Origin: Clostridia bacterium | GTDB taxonomy: Bacteria; Bacillota; Clostridia; Christensenellales; Borkfalkiaceae | Reading direction: 5' to 3' | Assembly (NCBI GenBank): GCA_017463425.1 | Contig: JAFTPE010000039.1 | Span: 1 to 35,701 of the forward strand | Length of the DNA stretch: 35,701 bases | In this document: in pieces, positions 13,161 to 15,698 of the stretch | Layout of the letters: each line of letters starts with the position of its first letter | How positions within the stretch are numbered: the first letter of the stretch is position 1 | Translations under genes and position numbers: made by a program | Notes under the pieces: generated by a model | The model's input: the letters and a program-made list of their open reading frames with translations, nothing else | The model's database searches: none | Told to the model about the DNA's origin: nothing

Positions 13161-13268
13161 GTCATTGCGAGCGTAACGAAGTGTAGCGTGGCAATCTATT
13201 AGATTGCTTCACCTACGGTTTGCAATGACATTCCAACTCGCCCCGTAGGGAACGGTCTTGACCGTTCC
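13161..13268. repeat. Composite palindromic repeat, left copy
   Basis: First part (13161-13229) is a cruciform-forming repeat: GTCATTGC at the left, GCAATGAC at the right, and GCAATCTATTAGATTGC inside. The second part (13245-13268) is GTAGGGAACGGTCTTGACCG plus TTCC, itself palindromic. It is matched exactly by its reverse complement at 14049-14072. GTCATTGCGAG-type palindromes are a common REP/MITE-like repeat class. Confidence 0.8.
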
Positions 13269-13280
13269 GATATAAAACCT

Positions 13281-13320
13281 AACCGAGCCGACAGGTTTCA
13301 CCCTATCGGCTCGGTTTTTT
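13281..13320. terminator. Terminator between GH2 gene and the opposing small gene
   Basis: An 11-bp stem AACCGAGCCGA (13281-13291) against 13306-13316 is followed by six Ts on the plus strand. On the minus strand the same hairpin follows the stop codon of the 145-aa gene, though its downstream tract is less T-rich. Confidence 0.85.
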
Positions 13321-13757
13321 CATTCTTCTTGAAATAATAAAATTGCCCTACATCTTAAACACAGTATTTTTAACCGTTTCAACGTTTTCTTGCTCATTAT
13401 ACCTTGCATAAATTCGTCTTTGTTTTTTATAGTGCGTTTTATCGATTTTGGTAACCGCGCATACATCTCGTCGTTCTTTTCTTCCTTTTCTTTGACCTTT
13501 ATTTTTAATTCCGCGTAATATTCCGCTTTCTCCTTTTTAATTTCTTCTCTTCGGTCTTGTATATCCAATCTTTCCCTTACCTTCGCCCAACTTGCTTTCA
13601 TCTCTTTCGACCAACCCTTGCACTCTATGATTTGGCGCGCGTATTCTTCCTGTGTTTCCCATTCGCGAGATTTTCGGCTCAGTTCCAATATTTCTTCTAT
13701 CCAAGTCAACAATTTTTTTCGGCGTTCATTCGCCATTTTTCTTTTTCTGTTCCACAT
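13320..13757 (-). CDS. Small charged helical protein, unknown function
   Basis: A 145-aa protein I do not recognise. It is dominated by Lys/Arg/Glu-rich helices with probable coiled coil at about residues 60-100 (REEIKKEKAEYYAELKIKVK). Tryptophans lie at 2, 19, 33, 49 and 57. A basic C-terminus contains CLRCR near residue 134. There is no signal peptide or membrane segment. AGAGGTAAGGT before the ATG provides a ribosome site; Met8 is an alternative start. The gene starts 24 bp downstream of an intrinsic terminator that ends a folded RNA (13782-13992) made from its own promoter, so expression would depend on read-through. The whole set lies between 24-bp inverted repeats. The basic character fits nucleic-acid binding, but that is speculation. 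Confidence 0.6.
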   Translation of the reverse strand: MWNRKRKMANERRKKLLTWIEEILELSRKSREWETQEEYARQIIECKGWSKEMKASWAKVRERLDIQDRREEIKKEKAEYYAELKIKVKEKEEKNDEMYARLPKSIKRTIKNKDEFMQGIMSKKTLKRLKILCLRCRAILLFQEE

Positions 13758-13781
13758 ACCTTACCTCTTTCGTTTTTCTGC

Positions 13782-13992
13782 AAAAAAAATGCCGTCCTCT
13801 TTCGAGAACGACACCGTAGACAATATCTTCCTCAAAAGCGCGAACTTTTCAAAACACCTTTACACGATATAGCCTCAACGGGATTCCATATAAAAGGGAG
13901 TAAGATATAATCCACCACGATTATATCCCGTTAATTGCTATATTAAAATAAAAGCGTAAAGTTCTCCTTTTTGTGTAGTTTTGAAAGTTCGC
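13782..13992 (-). ncRNA. Candidate ~210-nt structured RNA with own promoter and terminator
   Basis: On the minus strand, a promoter at 13999-14027 predicts a start near 13992. The RNA folds as a long rod by exact complementarity. P1 pairs 13978-13992 with 13840-13855 (15 bp, one bulge). P3 pairs 13956-13961 with 13858-13863. P4 pairs 13937-13943 with 13867-13873. P5 pairs 13926-13932 with 13877-13883. The tip hairpin pairs 13919-13927 with 13904-13912 (GATATAATC, 9 bp). Asymmetric internal loops of 16 and 12 nt lie on the 5' side. A 9-bp hairpin with a GAAA tetraloop (13791-13812) followed by eight Ts (13782-13789) ends it. The rod with closing stem and large internal loops recalls 6S RNA; an attenuator leader for the downstream 145-aa gene is the alternative. 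I match it to no known riboswitch or T-box motif. Confidence 0.6.
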
Positions 13993-13998
13993 ATTTTC

Positions 13999-14027
13999 AT
14001 TCTACCACTTTTTATATTTCTTGTCAA
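13999..14027 (-). promoter_or_regulatory. Strong promoter of the structured RNA
   Basis: On the minus strand TTGACA (14022-14027), an exact 17-bp spacer and TAGAAT (13999-14004). Start of transcription is expected near 13992, exactly where the long closing stem of the RNA begins. Confidence 0.8.
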
Positions 14028-14048
14028 CGATTTTTTTGTTGAAATTGT

Positions 14049-14144
14049 GGAACGGTCAAGACCGTTCCCTACAATTCTACCGTCATTGCGAGGCAGAGCC
14101 GTGGCAATCTTAGATTACTTCGTCGCTTTGCTCCTCGTAATGAC
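14049..14144. repeat. Composite palindromic repeat, right copy
   Basis: The palindromic 24-mer at 14049-14072 is the exact reverse complement of 13245-13268. It is followed by a GTCATTGCGAG..GTAATGAC cruciform repeat (14082-14144) related to 13161-13229. The order of the two parts is mirrored relative to the left copy. Confidence 0.8.
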
Positions 14145-14426: not shown

Positions 14427-15698
14427 ATGATTACGCAGGAGAAATTGACAATTTTAACCGAGAGCGCAAAATACGACGTGTCTTGTTCGTCGTCGGGGAG
14501 CAATCGGAAAAATACGGGCGGCATTGGAAACGGATACGTTTCGGGGTGTTGCCATTCGTTCACGCCCGACGGACGGTGTATTTCTCTTTTAAAAATTTTA
14601 CTCAGCAACGATTGCATTTATAATTGCAAGTATTGTCCAAACCGCTTGGACGCGGACGTACCGCGCGCCACCGCTACGCCCGACGAGATATGCGAACTTG
14701 TAATCGATTTTTACAAGCGGAATTATATCGAGGGGCTGTTTTTGTCCTCTGCGGTGTGCAAAAACCCTGATTACACTATGGAACGCCTGCTTTTAACGGT
14801 GAAAAAATTGCGGACGGAATACCATTTTCAAGGATATATACATCTCAAAGGGATTCCGCGCGCCGATTCTCTCCTTATGCAAGAAGCGGCAAAATACGCC
14901 GACAGAATGAGTTATAATATCGAATTGCCATCGGAACAGAGTCTAAAATTGCTCGCGCCGCAAAAAAGCAAGGAAAGCCTGTTGTTGCCTATGAAAGAAC
15001 TGACTCAGCAGAAAATTCGGTTTACGGAAGAAAAACGCAAGGGACAATACAAGGGGCATTTCTTGCCTGCGGGGCAAACCACGCAGATGATTATCGGCGC
15101 GTCGCCCGAACGCGACGGACAAATTTTGCGTTTGACGCAATCGCTGTATCGAAAAATGGATATGAAACGGGTGTATTATTCGTCTTACGTACCTATCGTT
15201 CGAGATTCACTTTTGCCAGATATCCCTGCGGGGCAACTGCGCGAACACAGGCTGTATCAGGCGGATTGGCTGTTGCGGTTTTACGGGTTTACGGTGGAAG
15301 AACTGCTGACGGAAAATGAAAATTTATCGACGGAATTTGACCCCAAATGCGCTTGGGCGTTGAAAAATATGCATTTGTTTCCCGTGGAAATCAACCGCGC
15401 GCCCCTTGAATTGTTGTTGCGTGTGCCAGGGATTGGCGCGAAAAACGCGCACAAAATTTTAACAGCGCGAAGATACGCCGTTTTGTCTTTCGAGGACCTT
15501 GCAAAAATGCGTGTAGCCTTAAAGCGCGCCAAACATTTTATCACTTGCAACGGCAAATTTTTCGGCGCAAAAAACGAAAACGCGGTGCGTGGTTTACTCG
15601 CCGCGGCGGAAACACAAGACAGCGCGCAGCAAATGGATTTGTTTCATTTGCTTTCCACGCCCCAAAACGCGCTTATCTCCTTACACGGGCAATTATAG
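14427..15698 (+). CDS. Putative DNA modification/repair radical SAM protein (TIGR03916 type)
   Basis: A 423-aa radical SAM protein of the family always found with a UDG-like partner. The CxxxCxxC cluster motif is at Cys63, Cys67 and Cys70 (NDCIYNCKYCPNR). The N-terminus ITQEKLTILTESAKYDVSCSSSG-like segment is characteristic of the family. A helix-hairpin-helix DNA-binding motif (LLRVPGIGAKNAHKIL) lies around residues 327-350. The longer frame from 14346 would start upstream of the promoter and contains no family sequence. The ATG at 14427 fits both family and promoter, giving a leaderless mRNA. The partner gene follows after 9 bp. The exact chemistry is unknown; a role in DNA base repair or modification is inferred from the partner and HhH. 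Confidence 0.88.
   Translation: MITQEKLTILTESAKYDVSCSSSGSNRKNTGGIGNGYVSGCCHSFTPDGRCISLLKILLSNDCIYNCKYCPNRLDADVPRATATPDEICELVIDFYKRNYIEGLFLSSAVCKNPDYTMERLLLTVKKLRTEYHFQGYIHLKGIPRADSLLMQEAAKYADRMSYNIELPSEQSLKLLAPQKSKESLLLPMKELTQQKIRFTEEKRKGQYKGHFLPAGQTTQMIIGASPERDGQILRLTQSLYRKMDMKRVYYSSYVPIVRDSLLPDIPAGQLREHRLYQADWLLRFYGFTVEELLTENENLSTEFDPKCAWALKNMHLFPVEINRAPLELLLRVPGIGAKNAHKILTARRYAVLSFEDLAKMRVALKRAKHFITCNGKFFGAKNENAVRGLLAAAETQDSAQQMDLFHLLSTPQNALISLHGQL

What the first reader, a model, noticed from the sequence alone, without database searches (positions are those of the whole stretch)
13245..14072. Cassette bounded by perfect 24-bp inverted repeats: promoter, folded RNA, terminator, small protein
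GTAGGGAACGGTCTTGACCG plus TTCC at 13245-13268 recurs exactly inverted at 14049-14072. Between them, all on the minus strand, lie a consensus promoter, a rod-like RNA with its own terminator and, 24 bp on, a 145-aa basic helical protein. The order promoter - RNA - terminator - protein is that of type III toxin-antitoxin loci and of some RNA-guided or RNA-regulated elements. However, the RNA has no tandem repeats and the protein matches no toxin I know. It could be a non-autonomous mobile cassette. The repeats may instead be ordinary REP-like palindromes that happen to flank it.
Basis: partly seen in the sequence, partly recalled or inferred. Interest (0 to 1): 0.78.

Follow-up and report, generated by a model that had tools for sequence, protein, structure and literature searches.

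The report
New switching leader RNA in Clostridia
The folded RNA at this spot is one copy of an RNA that the RNA-family library does not hold; it sits in front of many different genes in Clostridia, and its conserved, mutually exclusive folds suggest that it switches those genes on or off, while the flanking repeats look like ordinary scattered palindromes.

Summary
In detail: perfect 24-mers, near-consensus promoter, rod-like RNA, terminator, 145-aa ORF. The 24-mers are REP-like palindromes that also lie alone elsewhere. The protein is an orphan family with nine loci in this genome (one weak), all behind the same RNA. The RNA is the real finding. A covariance model finds it in 47 of 57 genomes of the genus; a second model in 70 of 391 sampled from the class; a phylum-wide sample of 299 gave only this genome. 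No Rfam 15 family matched. In sister genomes it precedes unrelated genes (BspA-type leucine-rich-repeat proteins, a divergent SLOG/YpsA subfamily, Zn-ribbon, SPFH, orphan families), in four genomes of the genus as two or three tandem units. The promoter is locked to the RNA: the -10 box ends 6 nt before the first pair in 96 of 106 copies. The strand after stem P1 can pair downstream (antiterminator, competing with the terminator) or upstream (P4 loop, 3' strand, linker); both pairings covary. Best reading: a transcription-attenuating, riboswitch-like leader with unknown signal. Type III toxin-antitoxin and 6S RNA are rejected.

The parts
13999..14027 (-). sigma-70 type promoter: TTGACA (14027-14022), 17-nt spacer, TAGAAT (14004-13999)
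   Evidence: family-wide the -10 box ends 6 nt before the model start in 96 of 106 copies
13782..13992 (-). structured leader RNA, predicted transcript start at 13992 to end of the terminator T run
   Evidence: z = -6.0 for 13783-13999; CM match 13784-13991
13978..13992 (-). P1, 5' strand (GCGAACTTTCAAAAC), predicted first bases of the transcript
   Evidence: family-wide the 5 modelled P1 pairs are formed in 98.7% of cells over 107 rows
13904..13927 (-). P4 apical hairpin GATATAATC-GTGGTG-GATTATATC
   Evidence: helices 3 and 4: 6 of 7 and 3 of 3 pairs with two-sided changes, 85% of cells paired
13886..13903 (-). linker 3' of P4 (UUCGCGUUUACAAA-like in much of the family, divergent in this copy)
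   Evidence: by eye; coordinates
13840..13855 (-). P1, 3' strand (GTTTTGAAAAGTTCGC)
13814..13838 (-). switching strand after P1 (CTTTTGAGG AAGATATTGTCTACGG): pairs either with the terminator 5' half (antiterminator) or with P4 loop/3' strand/linker
   Evidence: family-wide permutation tests; pair counts; in this copy the antiterminator is the predicted best fold of the 3' part taken alone
13782..13814 (-). intrinsic terminator with GAAA tetraloop and T run
   Evidence: terminator stem pair counts
13320..13757 (-). ORF of 145 aa, lysine/glutamate-rich orphan family (9 matching loci in this genome, one weak); a chimera of two paralogue lineages, switch point near nt 315 of the gene
13281..13316 (-). 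intrinsic terminator after the ORF
13245..13268 (+). REP-like palindrome, right end of the described unit
14049..14072 (-). REP-like palindrome, starting 76 nt before the RNA (as in 6 of the other 8 paralogue copies)

Best explanation
The RNA is a cis-acting leader that controls read-through into the gene behind it by transcription attenuation. Supported by sequence and covariation: transcription is predicted to start at the first base of stem P1; the transcript folds into a rod (P1 to P4); the strand right after P1 has two conserved alternative partners. Downstream it pairs with the 5' half of the intrinsic terminator (antiterminator, similar in predicted stability). Upstream it pairs with the P4 loop, P4 3' strand and linker (about 18 bp), displacing the P4 5' strand that it resembles. 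Inferred: with rod and P4 intact the switching strand is free to form the antiterminator and the gene is transcribed; when the strand invades P4, or the terminator wins, transcription stops after about 210 nt. A signal acting on the rod, perhaps at the conserved internal loop and the P4/linker region, sets the balance. The signal (metabolite, second messenger or protein) and the direction (on or off) are not known. In the window the controlled gene is an amplified small protein of unknown function.
For: Same RNA before unrelated genes. An ATG ORF of 60 aa or more starts within 150 nt in 74 of 101 copies, most at 15-38 nt, against 1487 of 5000 random positions. Antiterminator: own partner -10.97 kcal/mol against -7.42 when partners are dealt among 106 copies, 0 of 5000 permutations as low; strand x P4 loop/3' strand -12.22 against -9.38, 0 of 5000. 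In 30 class-level copies: -13.26 against -8.80 and -16.28 against -11.44, 0 of 5000 each, control null. Pair counts: antiterminator 85.1% and 77.6% of cells against 39.6-50.9% and 36.2-53.6% when slid; terminator 96.4% and 98.9%. P1 98.7% with all four Watson-Crick pairs at one position. Linked changes at one antiterminator/terminator triple: G-C-G 27, A-T-G 9, A-T-A 6, others 7 of 49. Best fold of the 3' part averages -19.2 kcal/mol, the forced antiterminator -17.1; in 37 of 106 the antiterminator is at least as good. Tandem units in 4 genomes of the genus. A divergent SLOG subfamily follows the RNA in 11 of 40 cases, high-scoring YpsA in 0 of 56.
Against: 27 of 101 copies have no such ORF within 150 nt, and one viral-contig copy (L197) is followed by what looks like a second hairpin instead of an ORF (by eye), so some copies may be stand-alone RNAs. 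The control pairing AT strand x P4 was not fully null (14 of 5000). AT x linker alone is weak within the two subfamilies (96 and 318 of 3000 permutations reach it). The antiterminator's excess over shuffles is modest on some measures: covariation score 17 of 500 and pairs with two-sided change 33 of 500 in A5, 39 of 500 and pair types 61 of 500 in A6; in A5 the triple is mixed. The upstream pairing is disfavoured if the rod must open: -45.2 against -61.4 kcal/mol for rod plus best 3' part, so its topology is unresolved. A promoter at a fixed distance in each unit is unusual for riboswitches (own knowledge). Permutations do not remove relatedness. No expression or binding data.
Confidence: 0.82

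Rival explanations
1. Independent trans-acting small RNA: a strongly promoted, terminated RNA of about 150-210 nt whose neighbourhood to genes is incidental, with occasional read-through.
For: Promoter locked to the RNA start in 96 of 106 copies and within 6-7 nt in 29 of 30 class-level copies; in the tandem units looked at, each has its own promoter; 27 of 101 copies without a close ORF.
Against: Tight ORF spacing (most 15-38 nt); recurrence before a divergent SLOG subfamily (11 of 40 against 0 of 56 high-scoring YpsA matches, tallied); a covarying antiterminator that overlaps the terminator, which a plain sRNA does not need.
Confidence: 0.12
2. Type III toxin-antitoxin locus: the RNA is the antitoxin, the 145-aa protein the toxin.
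For: Gene order only.
Against: No tandem repeats; no Pfam match above cut-off for the protein; no toxin family among the 18 Pfam families of the 79 downstream proteins, nor among the 25 of 31 NCBIfam families shown; the same RNA precedes lipoproteins, SLOG and other unrelated proteins.
Confidence: 0.01
3. Non-autonomous mobile cassette: the palindromes are the ends of an element carrying RNA and gene.
For: 9 paralogue loci in one genome, all with RNA; 7 of 9 with a palindrome starting 76 nt before the RNA, 2 with one 51-52 nt after the ORF.
Against: The palindromes lie alone elsewhere; the copies seen in sister genomes show no such palindrome to the eye; the gene copies show mosaic exchange, which recombination explains. 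Target duplications were not looked for. In 3 relatives the gene on the right lacks both the RNA and the ORF nearby, but the left neighbour gene is not there either, so no clean empty site was seen.
Confidence: 0.05

Closest known systems
Riboswitches with an intrinsic-terminator expression platform, including tandem pseudo-cooperative ones (PMC9481103, passages seen)
   Same: 5' leader, conserved fold, terminator/antiterminator exchange, tandem copies each with a terminator, several unlinked genes per genome.
   Different: No ligand known; promoter fixed to the RNA start and, in the units looked at, duplicated with it; the switching strand can also invade the apical hairpin; no Rfam match.
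Protein-dependent attenuators such as the rplJL leader (PMC4538822, search listing and start of abstract only)
   Same: antiterminator and anti-antiterminator logic.
   Different: No single gene follows the RNA; many unrelated genes.
Clostridiales-1 RNA (RF01699)
   Same: Clostridial RNA of similar length (166 positions).
   Different: No match in 8 genomes that carry this RNA.
6S RNA (RF00013)
   Same: rod-like RNA of about 180 nt.
   Different: A separate 6S RNA is found in 51 of 61 genomes searched, this one and 60 relatives; this RNA is multicopy and did not match RF00013.

Membership tests
Riboswitch | lies in the 5' leader of the regulated gene | tested here: met
   74 of 101 copies with an ATG ORF within 150 nt, random 29.7%; 27 of 101 without
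Riboswitch | conserved secondary structure with compensatory changes | tested here: met
   91.4% of cells paired, 392 two-sided-change cells against 118.5 shuffled, 0 of 500 (alignment fitted to the model, which favours it)
Riboswitch | expression platform with mutually exclusive folds | tested here: met
   (sequence level only)
Riboswitch | direct binding of a small ligand | not testable with these tools
   needs in-line probing or SHAPE with ligands
Known Rfam family (any of 4227) | score above the family's gathering cut-off | tested here: not met
   the window, its 901-bp core and 51 further carrier loci; only tRNAs passed a cut-off. On or across the RNA only sub-threshold matches, e.g. PyrR 20.9 bits (cut-off 54) and tmRNA 16.5 bits on the minus strand of L121 (cut-off 47)
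Type III toxin-antitoxin | RNA made of tandem repeats | tested here: not met
Type III toxin-antitoxin | ToxN/CptN/TenpN-type endoribonuclease downstream | tested here: not met
   (sequence profiles only; no structure could be predicted); unrelated partners
6S RNA | match to RF00013 | tested here: not met
   separate 6S in 51 of 61 genomes
Transposable cassette | terminal repeats specific to the element | tested here: not met
   palindromes alone elsewhere
Transposable cassette | empty sites | tested here: inconclusive
   RNA and ORF absent beside the right-hand gene in 3 relatives, but the left neighbour was not found there within 1.5 kb
Transposable cassette | target-site duplication, transposase in trans | not tested
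   not looked for

The most novel reading that the evidence does not exclude
An unrecognised riboswitch class spread over the class Clostridia, with 11 model matches in this genome, that reads a nucleotide-type or envelope-stress signal and sets surface lipoproteins together with a SLOG-family protein that may make, bind or destroy the same signal. Its promoter is fused to the RNA, so the whole promoter-switch unit spreads and stacks (up to three in a row) as a plug-in regulator.
Probability: 0.3. Interest if true: 0.9.

Novelty: new variant of a known kind. Interest (0 to 1): 0.77.

Why it matters
It adds a broad, multicopy candidate regulatory RNA class of Clostridia that Rfam 15 lacks. It links BspA-type surface proteins, SLOG proteins and several orphan families into one predicted regulon, and it has a concrete, mutable switching strand. 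If the ligand is found, it would reveal what these bacteria sense before changing their surface.

Tried and rejected
Considered and rejected: 6S RNA; PyrR leader (20.9 bits, cut-off 54); Clostridiales-1; type III toxin-antitoxin; an anti-phage role for the downstream genes (1 of 79 weak PADLOC match; one weak Thoeris-type match in NCBIfam; 84 PHROG families, mostly tail-type and unknown proteins among the 25 shown); solved-structure relatives of the 145-aa family (best E 0.93). A resemblance of the linker to the tetrahydrofolate riboswitch was recalled and noted; no such family appeared in the Rfam scans.

Literature: the listings (0 to 20 titles each) showed no paper describing this RNA. Passages were seen in PMC8040213, PMC9481103, PMC11109978, PMC8632094 and PMC2864571; no paper was read whole and supplements could not be read, so an unnamed motif in their tables is possible.

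Led nowhere: slow regular-expression scan (time-out); plasmid search (no match).

Rows dropped: the antisense match L076:2866-3015 and two duplicate matches were dropped before the counts on 106 copies (109 rows); 5 of 106 copies with under 400 nt of DNA behind them; 2 of 106 without a clear P4. The alignments hold 42 and 49 of the 106 copies (91 in all); 15 outlying or near-identical ones were left out by eye before counting.

Full report
What is in the window. The described elements exist at the stated places: two perfect inverted 24-mers, a promoter with 11 of 12 matches on the minus strand, an RNA folding six standard deviations below shuffles, a terminator, and 24 nt further a 145-aa ORF with its own terminator.

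The repeats. Each 24-mer is itself a palindrome. Its 20-mer core occurs at 18 places in the 1.34-Mb assembly with up to two mismatches, none for the reversed control. The six places outside the window that were held as loci are intergenic and hold no copy of this RNA. They behave as dispersed REP-like palindromes. One reservation: in 7 of 9 copies of the RNA+ORF unit in this genome a palindrome (up to 3 mismatches) starts exactly 76 nt before the RNA; in 2 copies one starts 51-52 nt after the ORF, in two more at 124 and 162 nt, and one copy is cut by a contig end. The palindrome thus travelled with the amplified unit.

The protein. P0001 has nine matching loci in its own genome: eight at E below 1e-16 (one cut by a contig end) and one weak, E 0.02. 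Nothing convincing was found in 60 relatives; the best was E 4.9e-5 inside a 707-aa frame. No Pfam family above its cut-off (three at E 0.05-0.23); a close paralogue (L046) has none in Pfam, NCBIfam, PADLOC or PHROGs at E 0.001. The window copy is a chimera: up to about nt 315 it is 84-100% identical to the C25/C40 copies in 45-column steps, after that 89-100% identical to the C44/C29 copies.

The RNA is the wider thing. All nine loci carry promoter, RNA and terminator upstream; two further RNA copies in this genome precede other genes. The rod sequence differs but the pairing is kept. In sister genomes the same RNA precedes other genes. A covariance model R1 (23 sequences) matched 47 of 57 genomes of the genus with 149 rows, at least one of them antisense to another, 11 in this genome, and 41 of 297 sampled genomes of the order in 17 of 125 genera. 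A second model R2 from 26 diverse copies matched 70 of 391 sampled genomes of the class in 44 of 223 genera (only 7 candidates per genome were scored there). A phylum-wide sample of 299 genomes, which included some of the same class, gave only this genome and so serves as a negative control. With R1 the class search had given 8 of 391. A 20-base pattern hit 26 stretches of named genomes: 24 of them hold the RNA by R1, uncultured Clostridia or Clostridiales, many from deer or sheep gut; the two with other labels (Sedimenticola, Prevotellaceae) do not and are probably chance matches. Twelve IMG/VR contigs hold it, five of them with the same RNA; two unannotated human-faecal phage records hold similar DNA. 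No plasmid record matched one class-level query.

Independent check of the models. The promoter is not part of either model. In 96 of 106 copies a promoter of 10 or more matches of 12 lies upstream (1.2% of random windows), the -10 box ends 6 nt before the model start in 96 and the spacer is 17 in 98. In 30 class-level copies 24 have 6 nt and 5 have 7 nt. So the predicted transcript begins at P1. Tandem units occur in 4 genomes of the genus (G027 three; G011, G024, G064 two each); in those whose sequence was looked at, each unit has its own promoter (and L213).

Genes behind it. 74 of 101 copies have an ATG ORF of 60 aa or more within 150 nt, mostly at 15-38 nt; random positions 1487 of 5000. 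Of 79 downstream ORFs (which also took shorter ORFs cut by a contig end), 18 match BspA-type LRR_5, 11 YpsA (SLOG), 3 Listeria-Bacteroides repeats, 3 zinc ribbons, and single ones SPFH, TIR, sigma-70 region 4, Rho_N, collagen and Ig-like domains. NCBIfam an LRR adhesin. Among the 96 YpsA matches in the genus, 11 of the 40 below 45 bits begin within 150 nt behind an R1 match on the same strand (15 within 1000 nt), and 0 of the 56 above 45 bits do (Fisher p = 2.6e-5, relatedness not removed). A SLOG gene also follows the RNA in a genome of another order (L204).

The switch. The strand after P1 can pair with the 5' half and loop of the terminator, forming an antiterminator hairpin. The best fold of the 3' part averages -19.2 kcal/mol and the forced antiterminator -17.1; in 37 of 106 copies, this one included, the antiterminator is at least as good. 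The same strand can pair with the P4 loop, its 3' strand and the linker (18.2 bp on average). Both pairings are better within a molecule than with partners from other molecules (0 of 5000 permutations). The segment x apex control is null; the AT x P4 control is weakly positive (14 of 5000). In 30 class-level copies both hold (28 of 30 and 30 of 30 better than the row mean) with a null control (three of these copies were also among the 26 behind R2). These permutations do not remove relatedness, so the within-subfamily tests matter: AT x apex and strand x P4 remain at 0 of 3000 in both subfamilies, whereas AT x linker alone is weak (96 and 318 of 3000). Pair counts with slid controls support terminator and antiterminator, though some antiterminator measures exceed shuffles only modestly (A5: 33 and 17 of 500; A6: 39 and 61 of 500). 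Linked three-way changes are clear in A6 (27, 9 and 6 of 49) and mixed in A5. P1 shows GC 53, UA 20, AU 16 and CG 14 at one pair (that alignment is fitted to the model).

Limits. The upstream pairing and the full rod are hard to hold at once. If the rod opens, the cost is large (-45.2 against -61.4 kcal/mol), so melting of the top half or help by a factor would be needed; this part is inference. 27 of 101 copies lack a close ORF. No ligand, expression or direction is known.

Novelty. No Rfam 15 family matched. Paper searches and passages of five discovery or review papers do not describe it, but supplementary motif tables could not be read. It works like a riboswitch or attenuator; membership of the riboswitch kind is not claimed because ligand binding is untested.

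Noticed in passing
13320-13757: The 145-aa gene is a mosaic: first ~315 nt from one paralogue lineage (C25/C40), the rest from another (C44/C29), pointing to exchange among the amplified copies.
   Followed up: partly
G000, 7 of 9 RNA+ORF copies: A REP-like palindrome starts exactly 76 nt before the RNA start in 7 of 9 copies, with paired changes in its arms in some; it could also be a regulator site.
   Followed up: partly
L022/L076 (G027), L012/L065 (G011), L135 (G064), L134 (G024): Two or three complete RNA-terminator units in tandem before one gene.
   Followed up: yes
L242-L252, L197: The RNA occurs in IMG/VR contigs; all 11 have an ORF with a Shine-Dalgarno-like motif close behind (small lipoprotein-like, PASTA-like by eye, or unknown), while L197 has a second hairpin instead.
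   Followed up: partly
G000: 6S RNA was not found in this genome although 51 of the 61 genomes searched have it (strict filters); the assembly is 82% complete, so this may be a gap.
   Followed up: no
L069, L076, L090, L097, L102, L103, L156, L164: A recurring small protein type behind the RNA, grouped by eye (..RSYGR..PTKLKK..LI..I..VLCGE..RGAP); only one of the 79 proteins scanned matches Rho_N.
   Followed up: no
window 14430-15698: Gene with a CxxxCxxC motif, resembling a radical-SAM DNA repair or spore photoproduct lyase-like protein (name recalled, not searched), present in 40 of 57 genus genomes.
   Followed up: no
L184 and L192: The 20-base pattern also hit MAGs labelled Sedimenticola and Prevotellaceae; the model finds no RNA there, so these are probably chance matches.
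   Followed up: yes
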